A stretch of DNA of 64,000 nt from contig JAFPUN010000002.1 of NCBI GenBank assembly GCA_017395365.1, positions 1 through 64,000 of the forward strand, in the 5' to 3' direction. The notes under the pieces are model-generated. The model was given only the letters and a program-made list of their open reading frames with translations. It did no database searches and was not told where the DNA came from. Shown here piece by piece: positions 5,380-58,650 of this stretch (positions within the stretch are counted from its first letter, which is position 1; the number at the start of each line of letters is the position of its first letter). The translations under genes and the position numbers were made by a program. Origin of the DNA: Bacteroidales bacterium. GTDB lineage: Bacteria; Bacteroidota; Bacteroidia; Bacteroidales; F082.

Positions 5380-5509
5380 GAGATTCCCTTCGGGAATGGA
5401 GCTCGTTTCTAGTTACAACGCGGCGGCTTGTACTGTTTACGTTATGTAAGCACTACAAGCCGCCGCTTGTTAACTCTATGTTATCAATGCCATTCCCGAA
5501 GGGAATCTC
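5380..5509. repeat. 130-bp palindromic intergenic element, copy 1
   Basis: Terminal inverted repeats of 20 bp (GAGATTCCCTTCGGGAATGG at the left, its complement at 5490-5509). Each end alone folds as a hairpin, the left with an ATTCCC stem and a TTCG loop. The centre is a second palindrome, GCGGCGGCTTGTA paired with TACAAGCCGCCGC. It abuts the stop codon of the S41 protease gene (5511). Related copies are at 21877-22007 and 58522-58650. No ORF lies inside, so it resembles a MITE or REP-type element. Confidence 0.85.
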
Positions 5510-5510
5510 A

Positions 5511-7097
5511 TCATTCTCCTTTAAGCTCCTCTAAAGCCCGCTGCAAAATCTCATCCATCGGAGCATAGATGGGATAGAACCCTTCGTCATCGAAGAGGTT
5601 GCGGGCGATGTAGGCTTTCAAAAGGATGTCGGTCTCGCGCCGCGCGACCTGACGCTGCTCCTCTGTACCCACTATGCCTTTCTCGTCGGCCAAATGCACC
5701 AAGGCGTCAAACATGGCATCAGTCACCTTGAACGAACGATCGAAAGCCTCCACGGTCTTGTAGCCTTTGAGTTGGGCGCGGTGTTTGTCGGTATAGTCGA
5801 AGGCATACTGGTAGAGCAACCCAAGGTTGACAATACGGTTGAAATAGTATTCGGTGCTATCGTCGACAAGCGGCACATAGATATCAGGCATGATGCCACC
5901 ACCGCCATAGACGGTCTTGCCTTTCGGCGTGGTAAACTTCAGCGAGTCGGCGAAATGGATGCTGTCGGGATGGAACAGCTCGCCGTTTTCATAGCGTTCG
6001 TACGACTCAAGCAGATAGTCCTCGTGGCTGTCGCCATAGGGTTTCTGGATGCAACGTCCCGTGGGGGTATAATAGCGTGCAACCGTCAGACGGATGGCCG
6101 ACTGGTCGCTGAGCATGATCTGTTCCTGCACAAGGCCCTTGCCGAACGAACGGCGTCCGATGATGGTGCCACGGTCGTTGTCCTGCAGCGCACCTGCCAC
6201 AATCTCGCTGGCACTGGCCGATTCGCCATCGATGAGCACCACGACAGGGATGTCTTCCAACTGCCCATGACGACGGGCTTTCATATAGTTCCTGGGGCGG
6301 TTGCGGCCTTCGGTATAGACAATGAGGCTGCCACGAGGCAAAAACTCATCGGCGATATCGACGGCGGCACTCAAGTAGCCGCCCGTATTGCCACGCAAGT
6401 CGAAGATGAGCTTTTTCATCCCCTGGCGGTCCAGCTCTCCTATCCCCTTCTTGAACTCGCTGACGGTGGTAGCCGAGAACTTGCTCAATTTCAGGTAGCC
6501 GATTTCGTCGTCAAGCATATAGGCGATGTCGACACTATAAGTCGGGATGGCATCACGGGTGATGGTATAGTCGAGCAGGCCTTCGACGCCACGGCGCAGC
6601 ACACGCACACGGACCTTGGTGCCCTTGGGACCTTTCAACTTGCGCATCACATCCTCGTTTTTCAGTTTCTTGCTCGCCACCAAGGTGTCGTCCACATAGA
6701 TGATGCGGTCGCCATCCATGAGTCCTACTTTCTCCGAAGGTCCACCCTTGATGACACTAACGATGGCGATGGTGTCGCGCTCGAGCCGGAATTGCACCCC
6801 AATGCCATCGAAGCTACCCAAGAGCGGGTCGTTCACCTCGTTGAACTCTTCGAGCGGAACATAGGCGCTATGCGGGTCCAATTTCTCCATCATGGCCGCG
6901 ATAGCCTCATCCTGTATCTCTTGGGCGTTAGGTTCTTCGACATAATCATTGCCGACATACCACATCACCTCGTCGAACTTGCTGCCACCCTCAACCTCAA
7001 CCTTCTTGGTGTTCACACCTTTATTAATATAGAGGCCGATGATGATGCCCGATAAGAGCAGGATGATGACCCAAAGGGGGCGGATTCTGTTTTCCAT
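5511..7097 (-). CDS. C-terminal processing peptidase, S41 family, membrane-anchored
   Basis: 528-residue serine protease of the CtpA/Prc type, which clips C-termini of envelope proteins. One N-terminal membrane segment (about 8-24) places the rest in the periplasm. Then comes an N-terminal helical region, a PDZ domain (about 90-165) with carboxylate-binding loop and GGPSEKVGL, and the S41 core with LRGNTGGYL. The catalytic dyad is predicted as Ser295 in GESASASEIVAG and Lys320 in RRSFGKGLVQ, the usual 25 residues apart. It lies 73 bp downstream of fabD on the same strand, separated by a small palindrome. A second S41 protease is at 56843-58501. Confidence 0.93.
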   Translation of the reverse strand: MENRIRPLWVIILLLSGIIIGLYINKGVNTKKVEVEGGSKFDEVMWYVGNDYVEEPNAQEIQDEAIAAMMEKLDPHSAYVPLEEFNEVNDPLLGSFDGIGVQFRLERDTIAIVSVIKGGPSEKVGLMDGDRIIYVDDTLVASKKLKNEDVMRKLKGPKGTKVRVRVLRRGVEGLLDYTITRDAIPTYSVDIAYMLDDEIGYLKLSKFSATTVSEFKKGIGELDRQGMKKLIFDLRGNTGGYLSAAVDIADEFLPRGSLIVYTEGRNRPRNYMKARRHGQLEDIPVVVLIDGESASASEIVAGALQDNDRGTIIGRRSFGKGLVQEQIMLSDQSAIRLTVARYYTPTGRCIQKPYGDSHEDYLLESYERYENGELFHPDSIHFADSLKFTTPKGKTVYGGGGIMPDIYVPLVDDSTEYYFNRIVNLGLLYQYAFDYTDKHRAQLKGYKTVEAFDRSFKVTDAMFDALVHLADEKGIVGTEEQRQVARRETDILLKAYIARNLFDDEGFYPIYAPMDEILQRALEELKGE

Positions 7098-7116
7098 TGA
7101 TTCAATTAATTAGGAA

Positions 7117-7160
7117 TGCGGAATGCTGAATGAGGAATACTGAGGTTCATTCAGCATTCA
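7117..7160. repeat. Palindromic AATGCTGAATGA repeat
   Basis: AATGCTGAATGA (7122-7133) and its exact complement TCATTCAGCATT (7148-7159) form a hairpin between fabD and the S41 protease. The same sequence family makes the larger palindrome at 31961-32074 at the start of sprA, and degenerate forms occur near 23768. Confidence 0.7.
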
Positions 7161-7170
7161 GCATTAAACA

Positions 7171-8055
7171 TTATACTGTCGCGCTTGAAAGCTCAAGATT
7201 CCGGTCCATCTTGCGGAAGAGGCCTTGCAACACCGTGCCAGGGCCCACTTCAACGACCGAACGCACGCCTGTGGCCAAGATATTGCTCATGGTCTGCGTC
7301 CACATGACGGGAGATGTCAGCTGGGCAATCAGGTTCTTCTTGATGATCTCAGGGTCGTTGACCGATTGTCCTGTGACATTCTGGTAAACCGGGCAGATGC
7401 CTTGGTTAAATGTCGTCTCGTTGATGGCTTCGGCCAGTTCGACGCGGGCGGGCTCCATCAACGGGCTGTGGAAAGCGCCACCCACGCTGAGCGGCACCAC
7501 GCGCTTGGCACCGGCTTCCTTCAGCTTCTCGGAAGCAGTTGCCACACCCTCAACCGAACCAGAGATGACCAATTGTCCGGGACAGTTGTAATTGGCAGGG
7601 ACCACCACGGCATCCTTCACAGAAGCGCAGATGCTCTCAATGGCAGCGTCTTCCATGCCGATGACAGCGGCCATAGTGCCCGGCTGGGCCTCACAGGCCT
7701 TCTGCATGGCCATGGCACGCTTGCTCACGAGACGCAAGCCGTCCTCAAAACTCAACACTTTGTTGGCGACAAGCGCGGAGAACTCACCCAATGAATGGCC
7801 AGCCACCATGGTAGGGTCGAAATCCTCCAACATGGAGGCCAAAATAACAGAATGCAAGAAAATAGCGGGTTGGGTCACCTTGGTCTGGCGCAAGTCTTCC
7901 TCGGTGCCTTCAAACATGACATCGGTAATCTTGAACTTCAGGATATTGTTGGCTTTCTTGAACATATCCTTGGCCTTGGAGAAATTATCGTAAAGGTCCT
8001 TGCCCATCCCCACAAACTGGGCTCCCTGACCTGGGAAAACGTATGCTTTGATCAT
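7171..8055 (-). CDS. fabD: Malonyl CoA-acyl carrier protein transacylase
   Basis: Transfers malonyl from CoA to acyl carrier protein, supplying the extender unit of fatty acid synthesis in the cytoplasm. The 294-residue chain has the N-terminal FPGQGAQ motif, nucleophile Ser88 in GHSLGEFSAL and catalytic His196 in GGAFHSPLM. Length and order fit stand-alone bacterial FabD. It lies 37 bp after folE on the same strand and probably belongs to the leftward cluster with it. Confidence 0.96.
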   Translation of the reverse strand: MIKAYVFPGQGAQFVGMGKDLYDNFSKAKDMFKKANNILKFKITDVMFEGTEEDLRQTKVTQPAIFLHSVILASMLEDFDPTMVAGHSLGEFSALVANKVLSFEDGLRLVSKRAMAMQKACEAQPGTMAAVIGMEDAAIESICASVKDAVVVPANYNCPGQLVISGSVEGVATASEKLKEAGAKRVVPLSVGGAFHSPLMEPARVELAEAINETTFNQGICPVYQNVTGQSVNDPEIIKKNLIAQLTSPVMWTQTMSNILATGVRSVVEVGPGTVLQGLFRKMDRNLELSSATV

Positions 8056-8092
8056 TGTTTGGTTTAAGATTTAATATTCAAAATTCAAAGAA

Positions 8093-8713
8093 TCAGTGCA
8101 GATTGCTACCTATCAGTTGGAGGAACTCGGCACGGGTGGTCTCGCGCTCGAAGGCACCGATGAAATCACTCGTGGTGGTCACCGCGTCTTGCTTCTGTAC
8201 GCCACGCATCGACATGCAGAGGTGCTTGGCTTCGATGACGACAGCCACGCCAAGAGGATGCAAGGCATCGTTGATGGCATTCTTGATCTGGGTCGTCAGG
8301 CGCTCCTGCACTTGCAGACGGCGCGAGTAGGCTTCCACCACACGAGCGATCTTGCTCAAACCGGTGATGTAGCCATTGGGAATATAGCCCACATGCGCCT
8401 TGCCGACGAAAGGAATCAGATGGTGCTCGCATAGCGAATACACCTCGATGTCCTTCACGATGACCATCTGGCGGTAATCCTCCTTGAACTTGGCGGAGAG
8501 CAGGATCTCCATCGGGTCTTGGCTATAGCCATGCGTAAGGAACTGCATCGACCTGGCCATACGCAAAGGCGTCTTTTGAAGACCCTCGCGTTGTGGGTCT
8601 TCGCCAAGGATGCGAAGGATGGCCTCATAGTGCTCCTGCAGCTGGGCCAATTTCTCCGGGTCGTAATGTTCGATGGCTTCGTAGCCGAAACGCTTCATTA
8701 GCTTTTCGTCCAT
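8093..8713 (-). CDS. folE: GTP cyclohydrolase I
   Basis: Converts GTP to 7,8-dihydroneopterin triphosphate, the first step of tetrahydrofolate or queuosine precursor synthesis. The 206-residue protein has the zinc site residues Cys95 and His98 in [10 protein letters not shown] and Cys166 in KHLCMSMRG, with the conserved block [20 protein letters not shown]. Full length. It begins 2 bp after the bactofilin stop, so translation is probably coupled. queA in this window uses a later intermediate of queuosine synthesis, but the two are not adjacent. Confidence 0.97.
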
Positions 8714-8715
8714 CG

Positions 8716-9084
8716 TCAGCCAATTTTTTGCTTAGGCATAGCCACCGTCGACTGTTGTCCCATGACGCACTTGCCAGTAAACTGGGCGCCCACCTCGATG
8801 AGGAGCTGCTTGGTGGTCAGGTCGACCTCCACCTTTGAAGTGGATTTCAAAGCGGTCAGTTCTTCAGTGTTGATGTTGCCTTTCACCACGCCTGCGACTT
8901 CAGCCTGTTTGCAGGTCAGGTCGCCTTCCATGATGCCGGTCTGCCCAATCACAACTTTGCCGTTGGACTTGAGGGAGCCAATGAGATGGCCGTCGATGCG
9001 GATGTCACCATTCGACTCGATGTCGCCTTTGATGGTGGTGCCGTTACCGAGAAGGTTGCGTACTGATGATTCCATTATAGCCAT
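8716..9084 (-). CDS. Bactofilin (polymer-forming cytoskeletal protein)
   Basis: 122-residue protein with the bactofilin beta-helix repeats: [53 protein letters not shown] and [17 protein letters not shown]. Bactofilins assemble nucleotide-independent filaments on the inner face of the membrane and help place envelope enzymes. It lies 4 bp after porW and 2 bp before folE, so it is in one transcription unit with them. The specific role here is not shown by the sequence. Confidence 0.93.
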
Positions 9085-9088
9085 GTTT

Positions 9089-11758
9089 TTACAGTTTGGT
9101 GTTAGTTTCTATGAATGTATTGTATTCTTCCAAGTCTTTCGACTGATAGAAGATGGGATAGTTCTTGTTGGAGATGGGTACCACGGTGTATTTTGCCTTG
9201 TCGATGCCACCAAAGACATAGTCAGAAGCTGTCATCGAGGCAAGGTATTGCTTGGCCCGGGTCTCGTTTTCAAAGTTACCAATGGTGATGAGGGTGTGGT
9301 CATCGTCGAGGATGACATTCTTGACATTAAAGCTACGGACACGATGCTCTTTCTTGTTGAAGTCGCTGATACGGACCAGTAACGGGTCGATGCGTACGTT
9401 CTTCGAGTCGCAAACAATCATCACGAAATGCTCAATATGAGGTTCATAGGTATAAGGCGAGGCCTTCTTCACCTCGGGTTGCTCTCCGCCTTCCTTGTTA
9501 TCGATCTCGGTGAGCACCAAGCCCAGGCTGTATTCCTCGTTGATATCGGTCAACACCTGTCGAGCGTACGGCGTAATGCTGCTATTGGGATAAGTACGCA
9601 CCAAGTCGTAGAGGGCAAAGGCCATGGTGTCGATGGCTACGAGACGACCTTGTGCCACGGCATGAAGGAAAGCGAAACGCGGCATGAAGGCCGTGTCGGA
9701 GGAATAGAGCTGCATCGCTCGCTCCGTATTCATCTTCACACGATAGTACTGGCCTTGCTCGAAAGCATCGTAAGTCTTGGAATAGAACTCAGAGGCTTCC
9801 TTCTCTTGCGCCTGCATCTTCTGGAAATACTCGGGATCGTTGATGAACTCGGCATAGCTCGACGTGGGGTATTTGTCGAAGATCTTACCTTTGTAGTACA
9901 ACGACTGTTCCTCATGGTTGAGGTCTTTGTGCATCTTATAGAGGGCATACCAGGTAGGCAGCTCCTTCTCGTTGCCAGGATAGCGGGTGTCGAGTTTCTC
10001 GTACGACTCGATGGAACGCGGCAGGTCGTCAAGACGGTCCATGTAGAGGAAGCCGAGATGATAGAGGCCATCGGAGATGAGTGAGTCGCAGACCTCTTTC
10101 TGCTCCATGGTGAAGGGCAGGTCGCGGAGATAGTAGCCACGGTCGTGGGTGGTGTAAGTGGCGTTGAGCGAGTCTTGTTTGGCTTTGGCGTTTTTCGCCT
10201 CGGTCATCCCTTCGTCTTCGTCGCCGGAGAGGAAGGCTGCAAAACTCTGCTTGTCGCTGATGCGCCAGTTGTCCTCGTTTTTGCGCATGCCCCACTTACG
10301 GGTGAACTCGGTCATACCTTTTGAGACAGAAGTGGGGTTGTAGAAGTACCATGAAGACCCGCTCCCCGAGGTAGGCTCCGACTTGGGCTGTTCAACGTCA
10401 CCCACAGCAGATCCCATCAAGGCAAGCTGTTCCTCGTATTCTTGTCGCGCCTTTTCCATCTCCTCTTGTTCGATGACTTGCGCGATGATACGGTCGATGA
10501 GGATGTTACGCGACACGCTGTCCATGGCGGCCACGCGCAGCAGGCTGTCCTGGTCGCGGACGACGGTGGCATACATCACCAGCTCGTTGAGGGTCTGCGA
10601 GATGTTCATGATGCTGTCGTAGTCCTTATAGTCGCGGCTCATGCTGGTGACGACGGTGTCATAGTAGGCCTGTGCCAATTCGTAGTCGCTGCGTTCAAAG
10701 AGCATGGAGGCCGCCTTGAGCGACGAGTACATGCGTTGAATCTGGTTGTCCTTATAGGCTGCCACCGACTTACGCAGGTAGTTGATGGCCTTGCTTTCGT
10801 CGCTTTCGCGGAGGGCCAGCTCGGCCATGGCGTAGTAGATGCGGTCGCGATAGTCCTCGTTGTTGGGATCGCGGAGCATCTTGTTCATCATCTTGTAGAG
10901 TTCCTTGGCGTTGTCGGACGTGCCCATCTTGGCCATATTCATGCGCGACTCAAACTCCATCTCATAATCGGGGTTGCGCTTGATGACTTTCTTGAACTGC
11001 GCCGTGGCGCGTTGCGCATCGCCTTGATGCATATAGATCTGTCCCAAGATGAACATGGCGCGGGTGCGCAGGTCGCGGTCGTTGTTGAGCAGCAGACCGC
11101 TCTTCAGGTAACGCACGGCGTTGTTGTAGTCCTTCACGGCGATAAAGTAGTCGGCAATGGTGAAGTCGATGTTGCGCATCAGCTCCTTGGGGGGCTTGGT
11201 CAAGCCTGCGGTCCTGGCCTGCAGTTGCTCGATCATGGCTACAGCCTTGGGATACTCCTCGGTCTGGATGTAAGTCTTGATGAGCCACATATTGGCCACA
11301 TAGGCGATGTCGTTGTAGTTGTATTCGGTAGCAACGAAGTCAAAGGTTCGCTTGGCGGGAATGTAGTCGTGTTTATAGAAATGCGCCTTGCCCATGACGA
11401 GATAGGCGTCATCGATCCATTTCACGCGTTCGCGGCTGCCGAATTTCATCGAGTGTTTCTGCACGCAGATGGCAGTCTTCTCGATGGCGCGGTCCATGGT
11501 GGAGTTCATCGCCATGCCGTTTTGCTGTGTCCCGTAGTTGTAGACACGGAGCACCTGCGTGTAGTCGTCCTTCACGGTACTACGCAGTTGCTTGTCGCCC
11601 TCCTTGAGGCTCTGCTCGCCATTGAAATAGACGTTATAGTGGCTGGTCAAATTATGGTACATGCGACGGGTGAGGGTGTTCTTCTTGGTGGAGCATCCGC
11701 TCAACATCAAGGCCAACACGCAGCCTATCGTCATGAATATGTAGGTTCTTCTATGCAC
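9089..11758 (-). CDS. porW: Type IX secretion lipoprotein PorW/SprE-like
   Basis: 889-residue lipoprotein; the signal ends at LALMLSGC with Cys22 as the lipidation site. The sequence just after it (STKKNTLTRRMYHNLTSHYN) matches the characteristic start of PorW/SprE. Repeated TPR-like helices cover about residues 120-400, for example RTRAMFILGQIYMHQGDAQR. The middle is charged and low in complexity (about 420-480); a C-terminal region follows near residue 780. PorW/SprE is needed for T9SS secretion and is linked to coupling of the ring components to the translocon. Its upstream neighbour is the predicted pseudokinase, 66 bp away on the same strand. Confidence 0.88.
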   Translation of the reverse strand: MHRRTYIFMTIGCVLALMLSGCSTKKNTLTRRMYHNLTSHYNVYFNGEQSLKEGDKQLRSTVKDDYTQVLRVYNYGTQQNGMAMNSTMDRAIEKTAICVQKHSMKFGSRERVKWIDDAYLVMGKAHFYKHDYIPAKRTFDFVATEYNYNDIAYVANMWLIKTYIQTEEYPKAVAMIEQLQARTAGLTKPPKELMRNIDFTIADYFIAVKDYNNAVRYLKSGLLLNNDRDLRTRAMFILGQIYMHQGDAQRATAQFKKVIKRNPDYEMEFESRMNMAKMGTSDNAKELYKMMNKMLRDPNNEDYRDRIYYAMAELALRESDESKAINYLRKSVAAYKDNQIQRMYSSLKAASMLFERSDYELAQAYYDTVVTSMSRDYKDYDSIMNISQTLNELVMYATVVRDQDSLLRVAAMDSVSRNILIDRIIAQVIEQEEMEKARQEYEEQLALMGSAVGDVEQPKSEPTSGSGSSWYFYNPTSVSKGMTEFTRKWGMRKNEDNWRISDKQSFAAFLSGDEDEGMTEAKNAKAKQDSLNATYTTHDRGYYLRDLPFTMEQKEVCDSLISDGLYHLGFLYMDRLDDLPRSIESYEKLDTRYPGNEKELPTWYALYKMHKDLNHEEQSLYYKGKIFDKYPTSSYAEFINDPEYFQKMQAQEKEASEFYSKTYDAFEQGQYYRVKMNTERAMQLYSSDTAFMPRFAFLHAVAQGRLVAIDTMAFALYDLVRTYPNSSITPYARQVLTDINEEYSLGLVLTEIDNKEGGEQPEVKKASPYTYEPHIEHFVMIVCDSKNVRIDPLLVRISDFNKKEHRVRSFNVKNVILDDDHTLITIGNFENETRAKQYLASMTASDYVFGGIDKAKYTVVPISNKNYPIFYQSKDLEEYNTFIETNTKL

Positions 11759-11824
11759 TTCGTTGTCGTTTTACAAACAATAACTCCAAAAAGGCCGAAT
11801 TATTACGGCGGGATTCAAAAAGCG

Positions 11825-21876: not shown

Positions 21877-22007
21877 GAGATTCCCCTGCGGGGAATGGAG
21901 ATAACGCTTTAACTTACAAGCGGCGGCTGGAGATGCTACAACATAGTAACTGGTATTTGCCGCCGCGGGACACAAAACTAACATACTCCATTCCCGAAGG
22001 GAAACTC
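21877..22007. repeat. 130-bp palindromic intergenic element, copy 2
   Basis: Same design as 5380-5509: end hairpins and a GCGGCGGC...GCCGCCGC centre. The left-end stem differs: ATTCCCC-TGC-GGGGAAT replaces ATTCCC-TTCG-GGAAT, so both sides changed together and the hairpin is kept while identity with the right end is reduced. It fills the gap between pheT and the sigma-54 activator. Confidence 0.8.
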
Positions 22008-25251: not shown

Positions 25252-25283
25252 TTTGGCATTCTCTTTCTTTTTACTTATGTTTG
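25252..25283 (+). promoter_or_regulatory. Predicted promoter of the RAYT gene
   Basis: TTTG (25252-25255), a 20-base spacer and TATGTTTG (25276-25283), a near-perfect Bacteroidota promoter. Because an in-frame ATG at 25278 lies inside the -7 box, translation should begin at 25304. Confidence 0.75.
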
Positions 25284-25303
25284 CAATTTCAAAAGCCACG
25301 CCA

Positions 25304-25996
25304 ATGCCACAAGAACACAAAAGAAATGAACATGATTTCATCTGCGAGAACGCAGATTGCGACATTGTTTTCCCTTATTTCGATGAAAAAGACTTTGAGC
25401 ACCTGAACTGGGGAACACATCTTCCCCATTGGCATCAAGATGACAGATTTGTTTTTGTAACTTTCCGTCTATATGATTCTCTGCCACAAGAGAAACTTCA
25501 ATGGCTCTACGAAGAAAAAGAAAGTTGGCTGAAACGCCATCCACAACCATGGAATGAAAACACTATTAAAGAATATATCGACAAGTTTGGAAGAACTGTG
25601 GACAAATGGTTAGACAATGATTTCGGAGATTGTCTGCTCAAGAAAAACAACAATCGAAAAATAGTTGAAGACGCATTGTTATTCTATGATGGCAACCGCT
25701 ATGATTTAATTGCATTTGTCGTGATGCCCAATCATGTACATTTGCTCATAAGACTAAAAAAAGGGCAAGATTTGATTGAAGTCATGCGTTCTATTAAAAG
25801 CTATACAGCCAAGAAAATCAACGAGAACGAAAAACGCACAGGCCGTGTTTGGCAATCGGAGTCGTACGATCGTCTGATAAGAGACCAGAAGCATTTTGAA
25901 AATGTCGTTCGTTATATTATAGCCAACGACAAGAATTTGGCTTGGGTGAATGCCTCCATTGTCGCCGACTGCGTCCCGCAGTCGGAAAAACAATAA
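25304..25996 (+). CDS. REP-associated tyrosine transposase (RAYT), Y1/HuH family
   Basis: 230 residues. A single-strand DNA nuclease domain related to IS200 TnpA: metal-binding HuH in VVMPNHVHLLIRL, probable nucleophile Tyr in VVRYIIAND, and the RAYT signature WQSESYDRLIRD. N-terminal LPHWHQDDRFVFVTFRL is also typical. RAYTs are single-copy, do not carry classical IS ends, and act on REP palindromes, which flank this gene on both sides. Residues about 12-21 (FICENADCDI) and the last 12 (IVADCVPQSEKQ) are themselves encoded by REP hairpins. Activity is inferred, not shown. Confidence 0.9.
   Translation: MPQEHKRNEHDFICENADCDIVFPYFDEKDFEHLNWGTHLPHWHQDDRFVFVTFRLYDSLPQEKLQWLYEEKESWLKRHPQPWNENTIKEYIDKFGRTVDKWLDNDFGDCLLKKNNNRKIVEDALLFYDGNRYDLIAFVVMPNHVHLLIRLKKGQDLIEVMRSIKSYTAKKINENEKRTGRVWQSESYDRLIRDQKHFENVVRYIIANDKNLAWVNASIVADCVPQSEKQ
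25338..25367. repeat. Single REP hairpin inside the RAYT coding start
   Basis: ATCTGCG-AGAA-CGCAGAT (25340-25357) followed by TGCGACATT, a copy of the right-hand REP of the flanking pairs with one extra loop base. It is read in frame near the N-terminus of the transposase. Confidence 0.8.
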
Positions 25997-26035
25997 AAGG
26001 CACCAAATCAATCTGCGAGACGCAGATTGCGACAA
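25959..26035. repeat. REP pair (BIME-like), right flank of the RAYT gene
   Basis: A 77-bp unit bounded by TTGTCGC and GCGACAA, holding CCGACTGCG-TCC-CGCAGTCGG (25965-25985) and CAATCTGCG-AGA-CGCAGATTG (26009-26029). Its left hairpin forms the last codons of the RAYT gene, whose TAA stop lies between the hairpins. Confidence 0.88.
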
Positions 26036-49421: not shown

Positions 49422-49442
49422 CAAATGAAATAAAACATCATC

Positions 49443-49898
49443 ATGGCCAGCACATTAGTCCAGCAATATATACACATCGTATTCCATACGAAATGCACCA
49501 GCATCACCATGCGTGAAGAGGATTTAGGGCGTATTTTCGATTATGTAGGGGGCATCATTCGAAACATCGACGGAGTTTCCATACAGGTGGGAGGTCGTCC
49601 CGACCACATCCACATTTTGGCATCCATGCCAAAAACCATGAGCCTAGCCGAATTTGTCAGAACCATTAAATCCAACAGCAGCAAGTGGGTGAAAACATTG
49701 GACAGCTATTATGAGCCATTCATGTGGCAGGTAGGCTATGGGGCATTCAGCGTCAGCGCTTCAGTGTTGGACAAAGTCGCCAGATATATCAAAAACCAGA
49801 AATCACATCATGACAAACAAACCTACGTCGATGAATACAAACAATTCTTGGATGCATACCATATTGAATATGACGAACGGTATGCGTTCGGGGATTGA
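49443..49898 (+). CDS. tnpA: IS200-family transposase TnpA (Y1 single-strand transposase)
   Basis: 151 residues, the full length of the family. The HuH metal site is DHIHILASMP, the nucleophile is Tyr in VARYIKNQKSHH, and YIHIVFHTKC and WQVGYGAFSVS are family blocks. The enzyme moves single-stranded DNA by cleaving at hairpins near the ends. There is no tnpB, so it is IS200-like rather than IS605-like. A strong hairpin follows the stop at 49911-49935 and three copies of an 18-bp motif lie at 49935-50034. It shows no relation beyond the fold to the RAYT at 25304. Confidence 0.93.
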   Translation: MASTLVQQYIHIVFHTKCTSITMREEDLGRIFDYVGGIIRNIDGVSIQVGGRPDHIHILASMPKTMSLAEFVRTIKSNSSKWVKTLDSYYEPFMWQVGYGAFSVSASVLDKVARYIKNQKSHHDKQTYVDEYKQFLDAYHIEYDERYAFGD

Positions 49899-49909
49899 AT
49901 TTTGTCGGC

Positions 49910-51442: not shown

Positions 51443-52414
51443 ATGGAAAAAATAAAGCAACTGCAACAGGATTTCGCCGAATTCTTGGCGAACACCAACT
51501 TCAACGGACAACCGAAGGAGTTATACGAACCCATTGCCTACACCATTTTGCAAAGCGGCAAACGCCTCCGCCCGATGCTCTGCCTCTTGGCCAACGAACT
51601 ATTTGACGGCGACGAGCAGCAAGCCCTTTGGCCCGCCTTGGCCTTGGAGACCTTCCACAACTTTACCCTCATCCACGACGACATCATGGACAAGGCACCC
51701 ATGCGCCGCGGAATGCCGACGGTCTACCAAAAATGGAACGCCGACATTGCCATCCTCTCTGGCGACGCTATGCTGGCTCAAGCCTTCCAATATGCGCTGA
51801 AACCCGATAAAGGCGCCGAACTCGCCCGACAACTCGGCAAGGTAGCCATCGAGATATGCGAAGGCCAGCAGATGGACCTCAACTTCGAGACCCTCGGCAA
51901 CGTCACCATCCCCGAATATCTCGAGATGATCCGCCTGAAGACCGCCGTCCTCTTGGCCACGGCCTTACAGATGGGCGCCACAGTAGCGGGAGCAAAAGAA
52001 ACTGACATACAACACCTCTACGACTTTGGCATCAACCTGGGCATGAGCTTCCAACTGCAGGACGACATCCTCGACCTCTACAGCGATGTGGCGGTGTTCG
52101 GCAAGCGCCATGGCGGCGACATTGCCGACAACAAGAAGACCTACCTTTATCTGAAGGCGCTCGAAATGGCTTCCGAAAAAGACCGCAAGCGCCTCGAACA
52201 GCTTTTCGCCCTGCGCATCGGCCACGACGAAGAGGAAAAAATCGAAGAGGTGCAATCCATCTACGACCGTCTTCAGGTGCGCGAGGCTGTCGAGCAGGTC
52301 ATGCTCGACTATGACCACAAGGCTTTCGCGGCCTTGGAAGCCATCGACTTGCCTGAAGAAAGGAAAACACATCTTCGCACTTACGCGGAACTACTGTCGG
52401 GAAGGAAAAAATAA
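51443..52414 (+). CDS. Polyprenyl (isoprenoid) diphosphate synthase
   Basis: 323 residues, all-helical trans-prenyl synthase. The first aspartate-rich motif is LIHDDIMD (Asp79, Asp80, Asp83), followed by RRG; the second is FQLQDDILDLYSD. It condenses isopentenyl diphosphate with allylic substrates, for quinone side chains or other isoprenoids. Phe74, five residues before the first motif, would favour short products (C15-C20), but chain length cannot be settled by eye. It is monocistronic, with a predicted -7 box upstream and a convergent terminator downstream. Confidence 0.92.
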   Translation: MEKIKQLQQDFAEFLANTNFNGQPKELYEPIAYTILQSGKRLRPMLCLLANELFDGDEQQALWPALALETFHNFTLIHDDIMDKAPMRRGMPTVYQKWNADIAILSGDAMLAQAFQYALKPDKGAELARQLGKVAIEICEGQQMDLNFETLGNVTIPEYLEMIRLKTAVLLATALQMGATVAGAKETDIQHLYDFGINLGMSFQLQDDILDLYSDVAVFGKRHGGDIADNKKTYLYLKALEMASEKDRKRLEQLFALRIGHDEEEKIEEVQSIYDRLQVREAVEQVMLDYDHKAFAALEAIDLPEERKTHLRTYAELLSGRKK

Positions 52415-52435
52415 GACCACGATAACAATAAAAAA

Positions 52436-52478
52436 GAATGCGGAACAGAAGGCTCAAACCTCTATTCCGCATTTTTTG
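52436..52478. terminator. Bidirectional terminator
   Basis: AATGCGGAACAGAAGG pairs with CCTCTATTCCGCATT with two mismatches, flanked by A and T runs, between convergent genes. Confidence 0.8.
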
Positions 52479-52500
52479 TTTTAGCGAATCTCAAGAAAGA

Positions 52501-52932
52501 CTATTTTTCAGACTTTTCAGTACCTTCGTTTTTTTTGAGTTCCGGTTTCCGCGCGGCTCTCTTGGATTGTCTGTCGACCTTCAGAGCCTTCTTCTCTTCC
52601 TTCAAAACTTTCTTCTCGGCGCAGTGTTTGCCATCCTTGCATTCCACTTTCTTCTCGGCGCAGCAATCACCTTGTTTTTTCTCCACCTTCTTGTCAGCGC
52701 AGCAATCGCCTTGCTTTTTCTCTACCTTCTTGGTGTCACAGCACTCGGCCTTCTTTTGCTCCACAGGCTTCTGAGTGTCCGTCGAAAGCGTAGGTTTCTC
52801 CTTCTTTTCCACTACGGCAGTCGTCTCCGATTTCTTAGTTTTCACTTCTACAGTTTGTGCGGTCGCATCTTGGATGCCCAAGGCACTAATGGCGAAGAAA
52901 GCCAAAGCGCCAAATAAGATTGATTTCTTCAT
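52501..52932 (-). CDS. Secreted Lys-rich protein with Cys-Cys repeats
   Basis: 143 residues. A signal peptide (cleavage near GIQDATAQ) is followed by a Lys/Glu/Thr-rich stretch and a repeat block at about 60-110: ECCDTKKVEKKQGD, DCCADKKVEKKQGD, DCCAEKKVECKDGKHCAEKK. Eight cysteines occur in the block, in pairs and singles. The C-terminus is strongly basic (KVDRQSKRAARKPELKK). No enzyme fold is expected; metal binding or sequestration in the periplasm is possible but unproven. It resembles the lipoprotein at 30000-30482 in composition (GGEKECCKHE), not in alignable sequence. Confidence 0.75.
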   Translation of the reverse strand: MKKSILFGALAFFAISALGIQDATAQTVEVKTKKSETTAVVEKKEKPTLSTDTQKPVEQKKAECCDTKKVEKKQGDCCADKKVEKKQGDCCAEKKVECKDGKHCAEKKVLKEEKKALKVDRQSKRAARKPELKKNEGTEKSEK

Positions 52933-52989
52933 GTTGATAGGGTTTAATTAAGTTTACAAATGAATATCTAGCAAAAATCGTTCCAAAAA

Positions 52990-54201
52990 TCAAGGCAGGA
53001 AGAGGCAGCTGTCGCCATAACTCAAGAAGCGGAAGCCCTGGTCGAGGGCAAAGCGGTAGCAGTCCTTCCAACGCTCACCGATGAGGGCTGAGACCAACAG
53101 CAACAGTGTACTCTTCGGTTGGTGAAAATTGGTAATCAAGCCCGTGATGATATGCATCTTGTAACTCGGCGCTATCATCAAGGCTGTACTGGCTTCAAGC
53201 CTGGTGAGACCATGCTTGTCGAGATAAGCCAAAATGCCTTGCAGGGCTTCTGTGGCCGACAAGGGTGCATGTGTTTCGTAAGGGAACCATTGCTCCACAT
53301 GCAAAGGCCGCAATGCATCCCCTTGCTCCTTTAGCATCACGCCTATCCAATAGAGGCTTTCCAAGGTACGGGTACTAGTGGTGCCCACAGGAATGATGGG
53401 CTTTCCAAAATATTGTATTAGATCTTCAATCAATGACTTACGAACGATGATAGTCTCCGAGTGCATGGCATGTTCGCCAATAGTCTCAGTGGCCACTGGA
53501 CGGAAAGTGCCCGCACCTACATGGAGCGTGACCTCATCGAAGCCAAAACCTTCGTCGCGCAGTTCAGCGATAAGCGGTTGTGTGAAATGCAGACCTGCCG
53601 TGGGAGCAGCCACCGAGCCGTCATAACGGGCGAAGACGGTCTGATAACGGTCGCGGTCGTCAGGTTCGGCATCACGATGCAGGTAGGGCGGCAACGGTAT
53701 CTCGCCTGCTGCCTCGAGTACAGCGGCAAACGACAGGTGTTCAGGAATCCATGAGAACTCGATCTCGGAATACTGGTCATTATGTGCCAAACGTTCGGCA
53801 AACAAGGTCACCTTCTCCCCTTTTACCGACAACTCCATCGAAAGTTTGCCTTCCTTCCAACGCTTGGCATTGCCGACCAGGCATTTCCACCGTACGGGCG
53901 AGCAAGCCGAAAACGCCATCTGGTAGTCTTGTTCAGGCTCAAGACAGAACACCTCGATGCGCGATCCCGTGGTCTTGTGGAACTGAAGACGCGCCCGGAT
54001 GACTTTGGTCTCGTTGAAGACCAACAAAGCATCTTTGGGCAGGTACTCACCCACATGCTTGAACTGGGATTCACTTATCACATTGTCTTTCAGCACCAAC
54101 AGCTTCGAAGCATCGCGCTCTGCCAAAGGGTATTTGGCGATGCGGTCATCGGGCAAGGGATAGTCGTAGGCTTCAATGGAAATGTCTTTTACCATATTCA
54201 T
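52990..54201 (-). CDS. queA: S-adenosylmethionine:tRNA ribosyltransferase-isomerase
   Basis: 403 residues from MNMVKDISIEAYDYPLP (54195 is an equally good start). QueA adds the ribosyl part of SAM to preQ1 in tRNA, giving epoxyqueuosine. Family blocks: PLAERDASKLLVL, NETKVIRARL, GEIPLPPYL and the conserved YQTVFAR-x-GSVAAPTAGLHFT with HVGAGTFRPV. The ATG at 54219 was rejected because it lies inside the predicted -7 box (54217-54224). Length is slightly above the 350 or so of E. coli, as in other Bacteroidales members. Confidence 0.95.
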   Translation of the reverse strand: MNMVKDISIEAYDYPLPDDRIAKYPLAERDASKLLVLKDNVISESQFKHVGEYLPKDALLVFNETKVIRARLQFHKTTGSRIEVFCLEPEQDYQMAFSACSPVRWKCLVGNAKRWKEGKLSMELSVKGEKVTLFAERLAHNDQYSEIEFSWIPEHLSFAAVLEAAGEIPLPPYLHRDAEPDDRDRYQTVFARYDGSVAAPTAGLHFTQPLIAELRDEGFGFDEVTLHVGAGTFRPVATETIGEHAMHSETIIVRKSLIEDLIQYFGKPIIPVGTTSTRTLESLYWIGVMLKEQGDALRPLHVEQWFPYETHAPLSATEALQGILAYLDKHGLTRLEASTALMIAPSYKMHIITGLITNFHQPKSTLLLLVSALIGERWKDCYRFALDQGFRFLSYGDSCLFLP

Positions 54202-54209
54202 CGTTGAAA

Positions 54210-54244
54210 TTTTGCGCAAAAGTAGGGATTTATTCCTATTTTTG
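54210..54244. promoter_or_regulatory. Overlapping divergent promoters of queA and gtrA-like gene
   Basis: A perfect palindrome TTTTGCGCAAAA (54210-54221) supplies the -33 TTTG of the rightward promoter (22-base spacer to TATTTTTG at 54237-54244) and part of the leftward -7 box TACTTTTG (54217-54224). The two promoters cannot easily be occupied at once. Confidence 0.55.
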
Positions 54245-54263
54245 CGCCGTTAAAGCAAAAGAG

Positions 54264-54674
54264 ATGGTCCCCTTGCCCCTAAAAATAGAACTGACCCGTG
54301 AGTTTCTGCTGAAGTTCCTGAAATTCGGCGTGGTTGGCCTGTCAGGCGTATTCGTCAACTTCGGCGTCACCTATGTCTGCAAGGAATGGTTCAAGTGGAA
54401 CAAATATTTGAGCAACATCCTAGGGTTCGTCTTTGCCGCCACCACCAACTACATCCTCAACCGGGTGTGGACCTTCCAGAGCACCAACCCACAAATCGGG
54501 GTGGAATACCTCAAATATTTTGTCATTGCGCTCATCGGCTTGGGCATCGACACGCTGACTGTCTATCTGCTCAACGGCAAGCTGAAATGGAACTTCTACC
54601 TCAGCAAGGTGTTTGCCGTGGGCGCCTCCACACTGTGGAATTTCTTCGGAAATCTGCTGTTTACATTTGCCTAA
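54264..54674 (+). CDS. GtrA-family membrane protein
   Basis: 136 residues with four membrane helices: about 17-34, 44-63, 80-99 and 113-134. Matches the GtrA family through LKFGVVGLSGVFVNFGVTYV, the ATTNYILNRVWTF block and GASTLWNFFGNLLFTF. GtrA proteins are thought to flip polyprenyl-linked sugars for decoration of envelope glycans. The start at 54264 follows the predicted -7 box; the longer frame from 54204 begins upstream of it. Its last bases overlap the cdd stop by 4 bases, tail to tail. Confidence 0.9.
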   Translation: MVPLPLKIELTREFLLKFLKFGVVGLSGVFVNFGVTYVCKEWFKWNKYLSNILGFVFAATTNYILNRVWTFQSTNPQIGVEYLKYFVIALIGLGIDTLTVYLLNGKLKWNFYLSKVFAVGASTLWNFFGNLLFTFA

Positions 54675-55156
54675 CCAAGGAACTTATCCAAAAAGATAAA
54701 TGGCATCAACGACTCGATGCCATCGAAGGCAAAGACGGGACCCGTCTCACCTTGGCATAGCACGCGCAGCGGCTGCTTCGACAACTGCTCCACCTCCACC
54801 ATCACCTGACGGCAGGCACCGCAAGGGGCGACAGGCTCATCAATGGTTTTGCTGGTAGAATAGGCCGTCACCGCCAAGGCTTCGAAAGGCACATTGGGGT
54901 ACTTGGCCATGGCTGCGAACATCGCCACACGCTCGGCACACAAACCACTAGGATAGGCAGCGTTCTCGATATTGTTGCCCGTCACAACCTCGCCGTTGGC
55001 CAAACGCACCGCAGCACCCACATTGAACTTGGAATAGGGCGCATAGGCATTGCGAGCCGCCTCGTGGGAAAGCCGCAACAATTCAGCATCGCTCGGGTCG
55101 AGTTCCTCAAGATGATCGTAAACAGTGTAAGGGCAAATAAGGCGTTCTTTTTTCAT
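54671..55156 (-). CDS. cdd: Cytidine deaminase
   Basis: 161 residues from MKKERLICPYTVYDHLEEL (55174 is an alternative start). Deaminates cytidine and deoxycytidine to the uridine forms for pyrimidine salvage. Zinc ligands lie in SGLCAERVAMF (Cys plus catalytic Glu) and VAPCGACRQVMVE, with the conserved YAPYSKFNVGAA. The much longer frame from 55399 was rejected: it overlaps the neighbouring ligase gene and the predicted -7 box at 55186-55193. Confidence 0.95.
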   Translation of the reverse strand: MKKERLICPYTVYDHLEELDPSDAELLRLSHEAARNAYAPYSKFNVGAAVRLANGEVVTGNNIENAAYPSGLCAERVAMFAAMAKYPNVPFEALAVTAYSTSKTIDEPVAPCGACRQVMVEVEQLSKQPLRVLCQGETGPVFAFDGIESLMPFIFLDKFLG

Positions 55157-55185
55157 GATGGCATCATTTTTCATCCATGATGCTG

Positions 55186-55193
55186 CAAAGATA
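55186..55193 (-). promoter_or_regulatory. Predicted -7 box of cdd
   Basis: TATCTTTG on the minus strand, 30 bases upstream of the start at 55156. It falls just before the end of the O-antigen ligase gene, so cdd is probably transcribed on its own. Confidence 0.5.
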
Positions 55194-55205
55194 AGGAAAA
55201 AAACC

Positions 55206-56843
55206 TTATTGATTGACATCCACACTTCTTTGAGGCTTGGCAAACAGCAACAAAGCCATAAAAAAGGCAAACAGGGTGGCACCCGCTTGGGTCTCAAGGG
55301 TGTCTTCGGGGAACATAGAGAGCAGCATGATGCAGAAAAACACCAAGTATAAATACGTATGGTTTTTTCGAGAAGCAAACCAAGGATAGAACAGCACAAA
55401 GAGGAAAAACGCCAAGCCTACAAGGCCAAAGGCCACGGCAATGGCCAAGTATTGATTATGTGCGCGAAAGCGATACTCCTCCTGCAAAGGCGAATGAATC
55501 TCATCATAGGCCTGACTGAATGCCTGTGGCACATCGCCCGTACCCACACCAAACCATGGATGCTGACCTATGAGGTGCAGCGAAGCCCTCGTGAACTCGA
55601 TACGCTGCGAGAGCGAGCCTCCGTTAGGGTTGTTGTATTTGCGATAAAGACCGTACTCAAACAAGGTCGACGAGAGACGGGCCCGCAAGCCAGGATGCTG
55701 CCAGTTGTTGTAGTTGGCCACCCCCTGCTCGATGTTATGGATATCCTCGTCTGTCAATGCCATGACACCTTGCGCGTCCTTGCGCAGACCTTTCGAGGTG
55801 AGATAACGAGCCAATGTAGGCTCTAACATCACGCCAGCCGAATCGTTCAAAGGAAGCGCACTACGCTGCTGCCATGCCTCCTGTAGTTCCTTGCGGCAAT
55901 AGTAAAGCCCAACATATTTCCCGTCTTCCACGGGGTTGTGTATGGTATCGTGCCAATAGTCGTTGCCTTGGGCCGTCTTCTTCTCCAAAGTGGCGAAGTC
56001 AACGGGCTCAACCTTCAACAAGGGCTTCATTTCGTGCCACACAACAAGGAATCCCGTAACGACCACAGCCACTAACAAGGCGGCAATGGCGATGCGCCAA
56101 CCCCAAGCTTTTTGCCAACGCAGGAAGGCATAGACGGCCGAAACAAGGACAACCGCTGCCAAAATCACATAGCCTGTCAGCGATTCGAAGATATAGATCT
56201 GATAGGCGAACCACAGCCAAATGAACCACATCAAAAACTGATTCACAGCCACTTTCACCCCAAAAGCAGGAACGCCATGTCCCCTCGGAACGCGCATCTT
56301 GAAAATATAATAGCCGATGACGGCCATGCTGAATACGATGTTGAGGCAGAAGCGGATGTGACTGATGAAATGCGAGATTTCACGGACATCTTCGTAGTCA
56401 TGTCTCCAATAGGATATGCTACTGAACAATGTGGCAATGAATACCGAGAGCACATAGACGAGCATGACGAAATCGAAACGCTTGCGGTCCAAAGGCGGCA
56501 TGCTCGAAAGGACGAAAGGCATGACCAGAATGGGGAGCTTGACACGCAAATCCTTAAGGGCATACTCGAAATCGGAGGTCCACAAGAGGCCTACGACATG
56601 CATAAGATAAAAGGCTACCAGAAGGACGGCGGCTTTGTTGTGCCAAAAGCGGGAGAGTTTTGTTTTAATCCCCCCGGTCCCCTTAAAAGGGGAAGTAAGG
56701 GCATCAACAAGCCAGACGAGGACCAGCCAGAACTGCGACATGCCCATGAGGAAGGGCGAGAGGGTGAGTCCCACGGCCACCATCAACAAGCCTAGAAGAT
56801 AGGCTTGGTTGACATAGGGTCGTATGGAAACCTTGGAGGTCAT
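55206..56843 (-). CDS. O-antigen ligase family protein
   Basis: 545 residues with about ten to twelve membrane helices. The Wzy_C/WaaL domain is recognisable by the large periplasmic loop (about 265-440) and IGQHPWFGVGTGDV followed by RAHNQYLAIAVAFG. Such proteins join O-antigen or other polymers to lipid A-core. The loop also carries SSTLFEYGLYRKYNN, and the sequence SPFKGTGGIKTKL (about 52-64) is encoded by repeat DNA with the palindrome CCCCTTAAAAGGGG. Its start overlaps the S41 protease stop by one base. Whether it ligates O-antigen or a capsule polymer cannot be told. Confidence 0.85.
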   Translation of the reverse strand: MTSKVSIRPYVNQAYLLGLLMVAVGLTLSPFLMGMSQFWLVLVWLVDALTSPFKGTGGIKTKLSRFWHNKAAVLLVAFYLMHVVGLLWTSDFEYALKDLRVKLPILVMPFVLSSMPPLDRKRFDFVMLVYVLSVFIATLFSSISYWRHDYEDVREISHFISHIRFCLNIVFSMAVIGYYIFKMRVPRGHGVPAFGVKVAVNQFLMWFIWLWFAYQIYIFESLTGYVILAAVVLVSAVYAFLRWQKAWGWRIAIAALLVAVVVTGFLVVWHEMKPLLKVEPVDFATLEKKTAQGNDYWHDTIHNPVEDGKYVGLYYCRKELQEAWQQRSALPLNDSAGVMLEPTLARYLTSKGLRKDAQGVMALTDEDIHNIEQGVANYNNWQHPGLRARLSSTLFEYGLYRKYNNPNGGSLSQRIEFTRASLHLIGQHPWFGVGTGDVPQAFSQAYDEIHSPLQEEYRFRAHNQYLAIAVAFGLVGLAFFLFVLFYPWFASRKNHTYLYLVFFCIMLLSMFPEDTLETQAGATLFAFFMALLLFAKPQRSVDVNQ

Positions 56844-58501
56844 TACTTGCCGCTCAAGATGCTATGGTATTCATCCTTGCCGTTGGTGTTGAGCAGGATC
56901 TCAAAGGCGCGCTTTAAGTCAGGATCGTCGTTAAGCGACGCGATGATACGGCCTTTTTGGTAATAATAACGGCCCACAATCTCGGAGCGTAATAACTCTT
57001 CGATATCTTTGCGGTTGCTGATCAAATCATTTTCCTTCTCGGCAGCAAGATTCTTTTCCAACAGTTCAATTTGAGGCTTAATCTTGTCGAGATAGCCTTC
57101 CTCTTTGGCAGTCTTCTTCAACTTCTCAATGGCTTTTTCGCTCTCGGTGGTATAGGCAAACTTCTTGTCTTTCACAAACTTCATGAAGTCCTGATAAGTG
57201 GCCTCGTCGATCTGGAACGACTCCGCCGGGGCGATGCTCTTGTGTTCGTGGTAGAACTTATTGGCGTAGTCAAAGATATAGTTCTTGGCGAAGAGATAGG
57301 CCGTCACCGTGGCATAAGCATCTCGTTTCACTTTCACATCGGGCATAATGCCATGGCCTTCATAGACGGTGCGTCCGCCGAGGGTCTTGAAAGGCTTGCC
57401 GAGAGTGTCATTCTTCGTTTGCGTGGTATCTTTCTTATGCGAATAGTCAATCTCCTGGATGCAGCGACCGCTGGGGATGTAATAATGTGCGACAGTGACT
57501 TTCATCTGTGTGTTGTAGCTCAACGGCAGGATGTTCTGCACCAATCCTTTGCCGAAAGTCCTTTGGCCAATGATGACGCCACGATCGTAGTCTTGTATGG
57601 CACCTGCCACAATCTCGCTAGCCGAGGCGCTGTTGCCATCGACGAGGATGGCCAAGGGAATCTCCAAGTCGACGGGGTCGTTGGTGGTAGGATGAATGCT
57701 GTTGGCATTGGCGGCCTTGCCTTTCATCGACACCACCGCTTTGGCTTTGGGGATAAACAAGTTGACGATGTCGACCGCCTCGTTCATCAGGCCACCGCCG
57801 TTACCGCGCAAGTCGAGGACGAAGCCTTTCAGCGTATGGTTCTTCTTCATTTCCAACAGTTTATCCTTTACTTCCTTGCCTGCGTCACGGGTAAAGCCAC
57901 TCAACGCCAGATAGGCAACGCCGTTGTCGAACACCTTATAATAAGGTATATTGTCAATCTTCACCTTCTCGCGCTTCAAGGTCATCTCCAGCGGTTTGTC
58001 TTCCCCATAGCGCTTGATTTTGAGTTTCACCTCGGTACCTGGTTGTCCCTTCAGCAGGTTGCTGACCTCTTGGGTGTTTTTCTTCTTGCAGTCAACGCCG
58101 TTCACCTCAAGGATGGCATCGCCGGCAATGATTCCGGCTTTCTGTGCAGGCCAGCCTTCGTAAGGGTCGGAAATGCGGGTCAGCTCGCCGTCATATTGGA
58201 TGAGGGCGCCAATGCCGCCGTATTCGCCCGTGGTCATGAACTTGGCGTTCTCGATGTCCGACTCGGGAATGAAGACCGTGTAAGGGTCGAGTCCGTCGAG
58301 CATGGCCTTGATGGCAGTCTCATTGAGTTCGCCGGGGTTGATTTCGTCAACATAGTTGAGGTTGAGTTCGCGCAGAAGGCTGTTGTAGATGTCAATGCTC
58401 TTGGCGATTTCGAAGTTGTTCTGCTTTTCTTGGGCAAGGAGTCCAAGGGGAAGGAGCAGAGCGAGGATGAAGGTAATAATTTGTATCTTTTTCATTTTCA
58501 A
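56843..58501 (-). CDS. C-terminal processing peptidase, S41 family
   Basis: 552 residues with a signal peptide (MKMKKIQIITFILALLLPLG then LLAQ). A PDZ domain (about 92-175, EYGGIGALI) precedes the S41 core, LRGNGGGLMNEAVDI. The predicted dyad is Ser293 in GNSASASEIVAG and Lys318 in QRTFGKGLVQ, 25 residues apart. The C-terminal 170 residues are helical. It differs from the protease at 5511 by a cleavable signal instead of a membrane anchor and a longer tail. It is downstream of the rnpA-yidD genes, with repeat copy 3 in between. Confidence 0.93.
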   Translation of the reverse strand: MKMKKIQIITFILALLLPLGLLAQEKQNNFEIAKSIDIYNSLLRELNLNYVDEINPGELNETAIKAMLDGLDPYTVFIPESDIENAKFMTTGEYGGIGALIQYDGELTRISDPYEGWPAQKAGIIAGDAILEVNGVDCKKKNTQEVSNLLKGQPGTEVKLKIKRYGEDKPLEMTLKREKVKIDNIPYYKVFDNGVAYLALSGFTRDAGKEVKDKLLEMKKNHTLKGFVLDLRGNGGGLMNEAVDIVNLFIPKAKAVVSMKGKAANANSIHPTTNDPVDLEIPLAILVDGNSASASEIVAGAIQDYDRGVIIGQRTFGKGLVQNILPLSYNTQMKVTVAHYYIPSGRCIQEIDYSHKKDTTQTKNDTLGKPFKTLGGRTVYEGHGIMPDVKVKRDAYATVTAYLFAKNYIFDYANKFYHEHKSIAPAESFQIDEATYQDFMKFVKDKKFAYTTESEKAIEKLKKTAKEEGYLDKIKPQIELLEKNLAAEKENDLISNRKDIEELLRSEIVGRYYYQKGRIIASLNDDPDLKRAFEILLNTNGKDEYHSILSGK

Positions 58502-58521
58502 TTATTTATTATTCGTATCAA

Positions 58522-58650
58522 GAGTTTCCCTTCGGGAATGGAGTACTCTTTTTTTTCGTTTTCGCGGCAGCTTCAAACAACATCCAACCCTTTGGCTTCT
58601 ATTGCCGCCGCAATATAGACTTGTCCCTCCTCCATTCCCGAAGGGAATCC
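58522..58650. repeat. 130-bp palindromic intergenic element, copy 3
   Basis: End hairpins TTTCCCTTCGGGAATGGAG (left) and CTCCATTCCCGAAGGGAA (right) match copies 1 and 2. The centre is more diverged, with GCGGCAG and GCCGCCGC as the remaining arms. Its right end touches the yidD stop codon (58652), and its left end lies 21 bases before the S41 protease start. Confidence 0.8.

What the first reader, a model, noticed from the sequence alone, without database searches (positions are those of the whole stretch)
5380..58650. A 130-bp hairpin element in three copies, each directly after a stop codon, with a compensatory change in the stem
Copies at 5380-5509, 21877-22007 and 58522-58650 share end sequences GATTCCCTTCGGGAATGG and a GC-rich central palindrome (GCGGCGGC/GCCGCCGC). 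Seen directly: copies 1 and 3 abut the stop codons of the genes they follow, and copy 2 starts 3 bases after the pheT stop. In copy 2 the left hairpin is ATTCCCC-TGC-GGGGAAT instead of ATTCCC-TTCG-GGAAT, so both stem sides changed together. That suggests selection on the small hairpin itself, probably as RNA, beyond simple terminal repeats. Inference: a mobile, non-autonomous element reused as a 3'-end or processing signal. I know of no named family that it matches.
Basis: partly seen in the sequence, partly recalled or inferred. Interest (0 to 1): 0.72.

Follow-up and report, generated by a model that had tools for sequence, protein, structure and literature searches.

The report
Repeat-pair hairpins parked after stop codons
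An uncultured Bacteroidales-type bacterium and its relatives carry dozens of copies of a 130-letter palindromic DNA element that sits almost exactly behind the stop signs of genes; it behaves like the repetitive palindromes known from other bacteria, but is a family of its own whose mover has not been found.

Summary
The three window copies are real and belong to a family with 34 places in this 72.6%-complete genome and matches in 13 of 23 same-genus genomes. The 80 hits listed in named genomes (of at least 114 stretches) are uncultured Bacteroidales/Bacteroidia records or 'bacterium F082'. Architecture: GAG-ATTCCC-nnn-GGGAAT-GGAG, spacer, GCGGCGGC, 31 nt, GCCGCCGC, spacer, then the end inverted; lengths are kept while bodies are near chance identity. 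Copies abut gene 3' ends (median 7 nt). In same-direction gaps 63 of 93 lie within 15 nt of the stop, against 15.5 expected.

Selection on the RNA hairpin is not supported: five core stem pairs show 0 two-sided and 76 one-sided changes in 362 ends, with no G-U bias on the transcribed strand (23 v 17). The paired change in copy 2 adds one base pair, a common variant.

Best reading: a REP-dimer (REPIN/BIME)-like, non-autonomous palindromic family without GTAG or CGTC tag and without a linked transposase. Unexplained: the same post-stop site holds near-identical bodies in some species pairs and unrelated ones in others.

The parts
5380..5509 (+). copy 1, 130 bp; 1 nt after the stop of the minus-strand S41 peptidase gene
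5383..5397 (+). copy 1 left terminal hairpin ATTCCC-TTC-GGGAAT
5420..5427 (+). copy 1 central stem, left arm GCGGCGGC
5459..5466 (+). copy 1 central stem, right arm GCCGCCGC
5492..5506 (+). copy 1 right terminal hairpin ATTCCC-GAA-GGGAAT
21877..22007 (-). copy 2, 131 bp; 3 nt after the pheT stop, before a sigma-54 activator gene; body scores better on the minus strand
21880..21896 (+). copy 2 lengthened hairpin ATTCCCC-TGC-GGGGAAT
58522..58651 (+). copy 3, 130 bp; abuts the stop of the minus-strand yidD gene, upstream of a second S41 peptidase gene

Best explanation
The element is a non-autonomous palindromic repeat of the REP-dimer (BIME/REPIN) kind: two inverted 15-17-nt hairpins tagged GGAG on the inner side, joined by a spacer of nearly fixed length with complementary GC-rich arms. 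Shown: copy number, architecture, restriction to the genus as far as tested, the post-stop position, kept spacing with near-random body sequence, variable loop with fixed stem sequence, no detectable target duplication. Inferred: it spread by a trans-acting enzyme that recognises the folded ends as single-stranded DNA (a HUH/Y1-type transposase is the most natural candidate, not identified). Inferred: copies survive mainly where they disturb neither a coding region nor a promoter, directly behind stop codons, where they become strong hairpins in the 3' part of the mRNA. Any effect on mRNA stability or ribosome release there would be secondary, as reported for E. coli REPs; it is not shown here.
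For: 34 places in the own genome. 13 of 23 same-genus genomes match (two of them weakly, G010 and G014); 1 of 16 other-family genomes, at a marginal 6.6e-4. 181 full non-redundant copies, 171 of them 125-135 bp. Of 161 parsed copies 111 have a left spacer of 21-22 nt, 114 a centre of 31, 122 a right spacer of 21-22, while body identity between unrelated copies is about 0.58. Loop variable in sequence and length, stem fixed, which fits a hairpin better than a rigid dimer operator. 0 of 181 copies inside a called ORF; 101 of 173 gene 3' ends lie -10 to 15 nt away, 2 of 143 gene 5' ends. 63 of 93 v 15.5 expected in same-direction gaps; one copy per site 32 of 46 v 7.9; convergent 21 v 8.5 and divergent 10 v 20.1 expected. 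No target duplication. Position next to stop codons, even supplying the TAG, and spacers with complementary ends and similar lengths are described for REP dimers.
Against: No transposase is linked: none of 31 Y1_Tnp loci in 9 genomes has the hairpin within about 1.5 kb or to the contig end (one chance-like match with 3 mismatches in L046), including all six of the 98%-complete G020. The tag is neither GTAG nor CGTC. Few recent copies: the best body identity to a copy at another locus has median 0.72, a tenth exceed 0.82, maximum 0.92, so present mobility is not shown. Empty sites are few and none is base-exact.
Confidence: 0.68

Rival explanations
1. Selected RNA 3'-end signal: the hairpins are kept because they stabilise or process the mRNA.
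For: Position directly after stops and enrichment between convergent genes; very strong RNA folds; at shared sites ends and GC core are about 96% identical while bodies average about 75%.
Against: Unrelated copies have nearly the same values for ends (0.92, 0.89) and GC core (0.95), so the shared sites show little extra constraint. 0 two-sided v 76 one-sided core-stem changes in 362 ends; G-U 23 v A-C 17. Of 20 pheT loci in relatives none has the element: 10 have no insert, 9 have other inserts, 1 is cut short. 10 of 23 same-genus genomes have no match.
Confidence: 0.15
2. Classical DNA-transposon MITE with terminal inverted repeats, moved by a DDE transposase.
For: 22-bp inverted ends, nearly constant length, intergenic dispersal.
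Against: No target duplication for k = 2-10 and 12; ends are themselves palindromes with free loops. In G020 every end with at most one mismatch belongs to a 130-bp element, so no longer parent was seen there. Not excluded: four G020 ends with two mismatches are not in a model match or were not fetched, and the other five genomes were checked only in part.
Confidence: 0.12
3. Site-preserving exchange: ends stay at a fixed post-stop site while the body is swapped between copies by recombination or conversion.
For: 54 same-site pairs have a bimodal body identity: 30 at or below 0.74, 22 at or above 0.86, two at 0.78 and 0.81. Body orientation is random in the low group (14 v 16) but mostly kept in the high group (19 v 3). 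L187-L132: flanks 92/88%, body 0.65; L103-L187: flanks 86/79%, body 0.92. Half-matching mosaic bodies. In low pairs uncommon loop types tend to recur at the same end, 11 of 17 v 0.39 overall (p = 0.04), as if the ends were inherited.
Against: With clear orientation (5 bits or more) the low group is 9 v 5, not distinguishable from kept or random. Noncoding DNA near the element is often only about 0.7 identical in low pairs, so drift of an unconstrained body is possible; some high pairs lie in local tracts of high identity, as general recombination between species would leave.
Confidence: 0.2

Closest known systems
REP dimers / BIME / REPIN (GTAG and CGTC REPs; PMC3733652)
   Same: Two inverted short palindromes with a spacer (20-100 bp in most described dimers), spacers that may share length but not sequence and may have complementary ends; intergenic, close to stop codons, between same-direction or convergent genes; may supply the TAG (here T|AGATTCCC).
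   Different: Tag is GGAG/CTCC inside and GAG/CTC outside, not GTAG or CGTC; no single-unit copies with at most one mismatch in G020; no linked RAYT found.
CGTC REPs
   Same: No dedicated transposase although tyrosine transposases are present in the genomes; reported from Bacteroidetes among other phyla.
   Different: Different tag; stem sequences not compared.
ERIC, NEMIS and similar bacterial MITEs
   Same: About 130 bp (recalled for ERIC), transcribed, next to genes (PMC3733652 passage).
   Different: Those MITEs are described with 15-30-bp terminal repeats; here each end is its own hairpin and no target duplication is seen.
Porphyromonas gingivalis MITE (PMC4596501; seen in search listing only)
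   Same: Non-autonomous repeat in a Bacteroidales member.
   Different: Carries a minisatellite; not compared by sequence here.

Membership tests
REP / REPIN (GTAG type) | High-copy short intergenic palindromes arranged as inverted pairs | tested here: met
   34 places, 32 of about full length; G020 ends with at most one mismatch are all in paired elements
REP / REPIN (GTAG type) | Location next to gene 3' ends | tested here: met
   101 of 173 gene 3' ends within 15 nt, 2 of 143 gene 5' ends
REP / REPIN (GTAG type) | GTAG tag at the foot of the hairpin | tested here: not met
   Foot motifs are GAG/CTC outside and GGAG/CTCC inside
REP / REPIN (GTAG type) | Cognate RAYT gene flanked by the repeat | tested here: not met
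   0 of 31 Y1_Tnp loci in 9 genomes; four of these genomes are under 80% complete
CGTC REP | CGTC tag | tested here: not met
   Same motif counts
TIR-type MITE | Target-site duplication | tested here: not met
   No excess match of flanks (z above 3) for k = 2-10 and 12
TIR-type MITE | Parent insertion sequence with the same ends | tested here: inconclusive
   None seen in G020 among ends with at most one mismatch; other genomes checked in part; a parent with less similar ends would be missed
Rfam RNA family | Match above gathering score | tested here: not met
   Only a tRNA in the window

The most novel reading that the evidence does not exclude
The hairpin ends mark fixed post-stop 'slots' at which an unknown recombination or transposition process swaps whole or half bodies between copies, keeping ends, length and GC core, so that related species hold the same slot with unrelated contents in either orientation.
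Probability: 0.18. Interest if true: 0.65.

Novelty: new member of a known kind. Interest (0 to 1): 0.4.

Why it matters
It adds a large palindrome-pair family, restricted to one uncultured Bacteroidales genus as far as tested, with the same stop-codon hugging as described for REPs of other phyla but without their tag or a linked transposase. That makes the post-stop position look like a general outcome for such repeats rather than a peculiarity of RAYT systems. Many orthologous sites across species make it a good system to separate selection from spread.

Tried and rejected
RNA-level selection: tested by two-sided changes and by G-U v A-C on the transcribed strand (also 8 v 8 convergent, 5 v 8 divergent, 1 v 5 edge, strand not defined there); not supported. 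Target duplication: none. RAYT link: 31 Y1 loci, none with the motif. One Y1 type (L027) is 96-99% identical in G002, G015 (partial) and G020, 72% in G009 (no copy), 60% in G003 and 53% in G018. With the own genome it thus tracks four of the five high-copy genomes (two-strand matches 68, 85, 70, 86, 50 for own, G002, G015, G018, G020). But it is flanked by other palindromes (CCCCACA..TGTGGGG, GCGTGTC..GACACGC) and shared ancestry is not controlled. A second Y1 type does not track copy number (87% in G017, which has no copy). Phage and plasmid carriage: 0 exact-pattern hits in viral contigs, no match in plasmids.

'Other palindromes fill the same slots' looked striking at pheT. Against a control the excess is weak: non-element inserts with fold z below -3 are listed as 21 of 29, in 10 of 13 slots, v 42 of 90 ordinary gaps downstream of genes. 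One listed row (slot s134, window) is the element itself; without it 20 of 28 inserts (p = 0.03, inserts not independent) and 9 of 13 slots (p = 0.15). I do not claim it.

Limits: 24 of 219 hits were dropped as duplicates and 14 of 195 as partial; 20 of 181 copies did not parse and 15 of 69 same-site pairs were therefore left out. Copies with decayed ends are less likely to be detected, so stem conservation is biased upward. Gene calls come from a simple codon-score caller trained on the window, not Prodigal. The background is taken from the window and loci that were chosen for holding the element. In one search the flank profile is shifted by one base because of fuzzy matching; the duplication scan covers offsets 0-4.

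Literature: searches found no description of this family in the held open library; one search failed on input length and was not repeated. PMC3733652: abstract, sections 14-16 and passages read. PMC6006769, PMC2817692, PMC5082802: passages only. Liang et al. 2015 on REPs near stop codons: not read, known from a sentence in PMC5082802.

Full report
WHAT IS THERE. The three copies lie at 5380-5509, 21877-22007 and 58522-58651, 1, 3 and 0 nt behind the stops of an S41 peptidase gene, pheT and yidD (Pfam). A covariance model from 21 own-genome copies finds 34 places in the 2.11-Mb, 72.6%-complete genome: 32 of about full length, one lacking the outer parts and one of 67 bp. Of 23 same-genus genomes 13 have matches and 10 none; of 16 genomes of other families in the order one has a single marginal match. 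None in viral contigs or plasmids.

ANATOMY. From the held loci 219 hits gave 195 non-redundant and 181 full copies, 171 of them 125-135 bp. Ends read GAG-ATTCCC-nnn-GGGAAT-GGAG. Of 362 ends 342 parsed; the commonest are a 6-bp stem with loop TTC (162) or TGC (48), the rest vary in loop sequence and length, and 54 have stems lengthened by matched C-G or G-C pairs (my count). Counted from behind GGAATGG, a left spacer of 21-22 nt, GCGGCGGC, 31 nt, GCCGCCGC and a right spacer of 21-22 nt follow in most of 161 parsed copies. These lengths are kept although bodies of unrelated copies are only about 58% identical, little above shuffled bodies (0.63 v 0.60 when the better orientation is taken). As RNA the whole element folds with z -12.7, -5.9 and -7.1 for the three copies.

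POSITION. With a simple gene caller, 93 copies lie in same-direction gaps, 40 in convergent, 25 in divergent gaps and 23 at locus edges; none lies inside a called ORF. Median distance to a gene 3' end is 7 nt and to a 5' end 102 nt. In same-direction gaps 63 of 93 are within 15 nt of the stop against 15.5 expected for uniform placing; with one copy per site, 32 of 46 against 7.9. Against intergenic length, convergent gaps are over-used (21 v 8.5) and divergent ones under-used (10 v 20.1; p = 8.7e-6). Several copies supply part of the stop codon: T|AGATTCCC as TAG, or an overlap TGAGATTCCC as TGA.

SELECTION ON RNA? The five core pairs ATTCC/GGAAT show no two-sided change and 76 one-sided changes in 362 ends, 54 of them at the outermost pair. 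On the transcribed strand of the 93 same-direction copies there are 23 G-U and 17 A-C mismatches (and 27 others, 22 of them A-A at the far hairpin) among 1666 pairs (p = 0.43). So the stem is held as a sequence, not merely as a pairing, and no transcript strand is favoured. The paired change in copy 2 is one of the common stem-length variants. The test has limited power, because few pairs vary.

MOBILITY. No target duplication is visible. At pheT none of 20 relatives' loci has the element: 10 have no insert (often TAATG, stop and start overlapping), 9 have other inserts, 1 is cut short. At the S41 site 1 of 11 other loci has it, G020. None of 31 Y1_Tnp loci carries the hairpin nearby. All ends with at most one mismatch in the 98%-complete G020 belong to 130-bp elements; four further G020 ends with two mismatches do not, or were not fetched, where the reversed control pattern gives one. 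So no larger parent was found there. Some of the genus's Y1 genes have their own, different palindromes beside them. By length and the motif Y-I-x-x-Q-K-x-H-H three of them (L026, L027, L028) resemble the Bacteroidetes/Cyanobacteria subclass 1.2 of PMC6006769 (passages).

SAME SITE, DIFFERENT BODY. 69 same-site pairs with both flanks were found and 54 could be parsed. Body identity is bimodal, and the low group is no more alike in the orientation that the flanks dictate than when flipped (15 of 27 below 0.70, p = 0.70; model orientation 14 v 16, or 9 v 5 when only clear calls are kept). Of 27 sites six hold both kinds of pair (my count from the listing). Body identity does not simply follow flank identity, e.g. 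L187-L132 v L103-L187. Uncommon loop types recur at the same end in low pairs (11 of 17 v 0.39 overall, p = 0.04). This fits replacement or conversion of bodies between inherited ends, but saturation of an unconstrained body in older pairs cannot be excluded, since nearby noncoding flanks are often only about 0.7 identical.

COMPARISON. The description of REP dimers in PMC3733652 (sections 14-16) fits closely in arrangement, spacers and stop-codon position. The defining GTAG/CGTC tag and the RAYT link were tested and not met. I therefore file it as a REP-dimer-like family of its own, not as a GTAG or CGTC REP.

VERDICT. A real, well-defined and previously unnamed (in the searched library) member of a known kind. 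The RNA-selection claim is not supported; the site-exchange pattern is the part that deserves follow-up.

Noticed in passing
window 25280-26020: A RAYT-like Y1 transposase gene flanked by another palindromic repeat (TTGTCGCCGACTGCG..CGCAGTCGG), apparently its own REP family.
   Followed up: partly
window 49444-49899: IS200-like Y1 gene (151 aa, subclass-1.2-like motif) followed by direct repeats GGCAGGGGTTTACACC.
   Followed up: partly
L027 (G000:C16:151934-152275): A Y1 gene, 96-99% identical in three other high-copy genomes (one partial), flanked by the palindromes CCCCACA..TGTGGGG and GCGTGTC..GACACGC.
   Followed up: partly
pheT 3' end in L203, L207, L208, L211, L212, L213, L215: The same junction holds large hairpins made of inverted arrays of about 7-nt units (GAATGCn, CTATGGC, CAGTTGn) in other genomes.
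   Followed up: partly
L018 3412-3856 (G000:C7:83111-83555): Three near-identical copies in tandem with a 159-bp period, including a shared 32-nt spacer.
   Followed up: no
same-direction copies: The outermost stem base is T at the end far from the stop in 23 copies but at the near end in only 2 (9 v 1 with one copy per site).
   Followed up: no
90 control gaps: Ordinary gaps downstream of genes without the element are rich in hairpins: 42 of 90 have fold z below -3.
   Followed up: no
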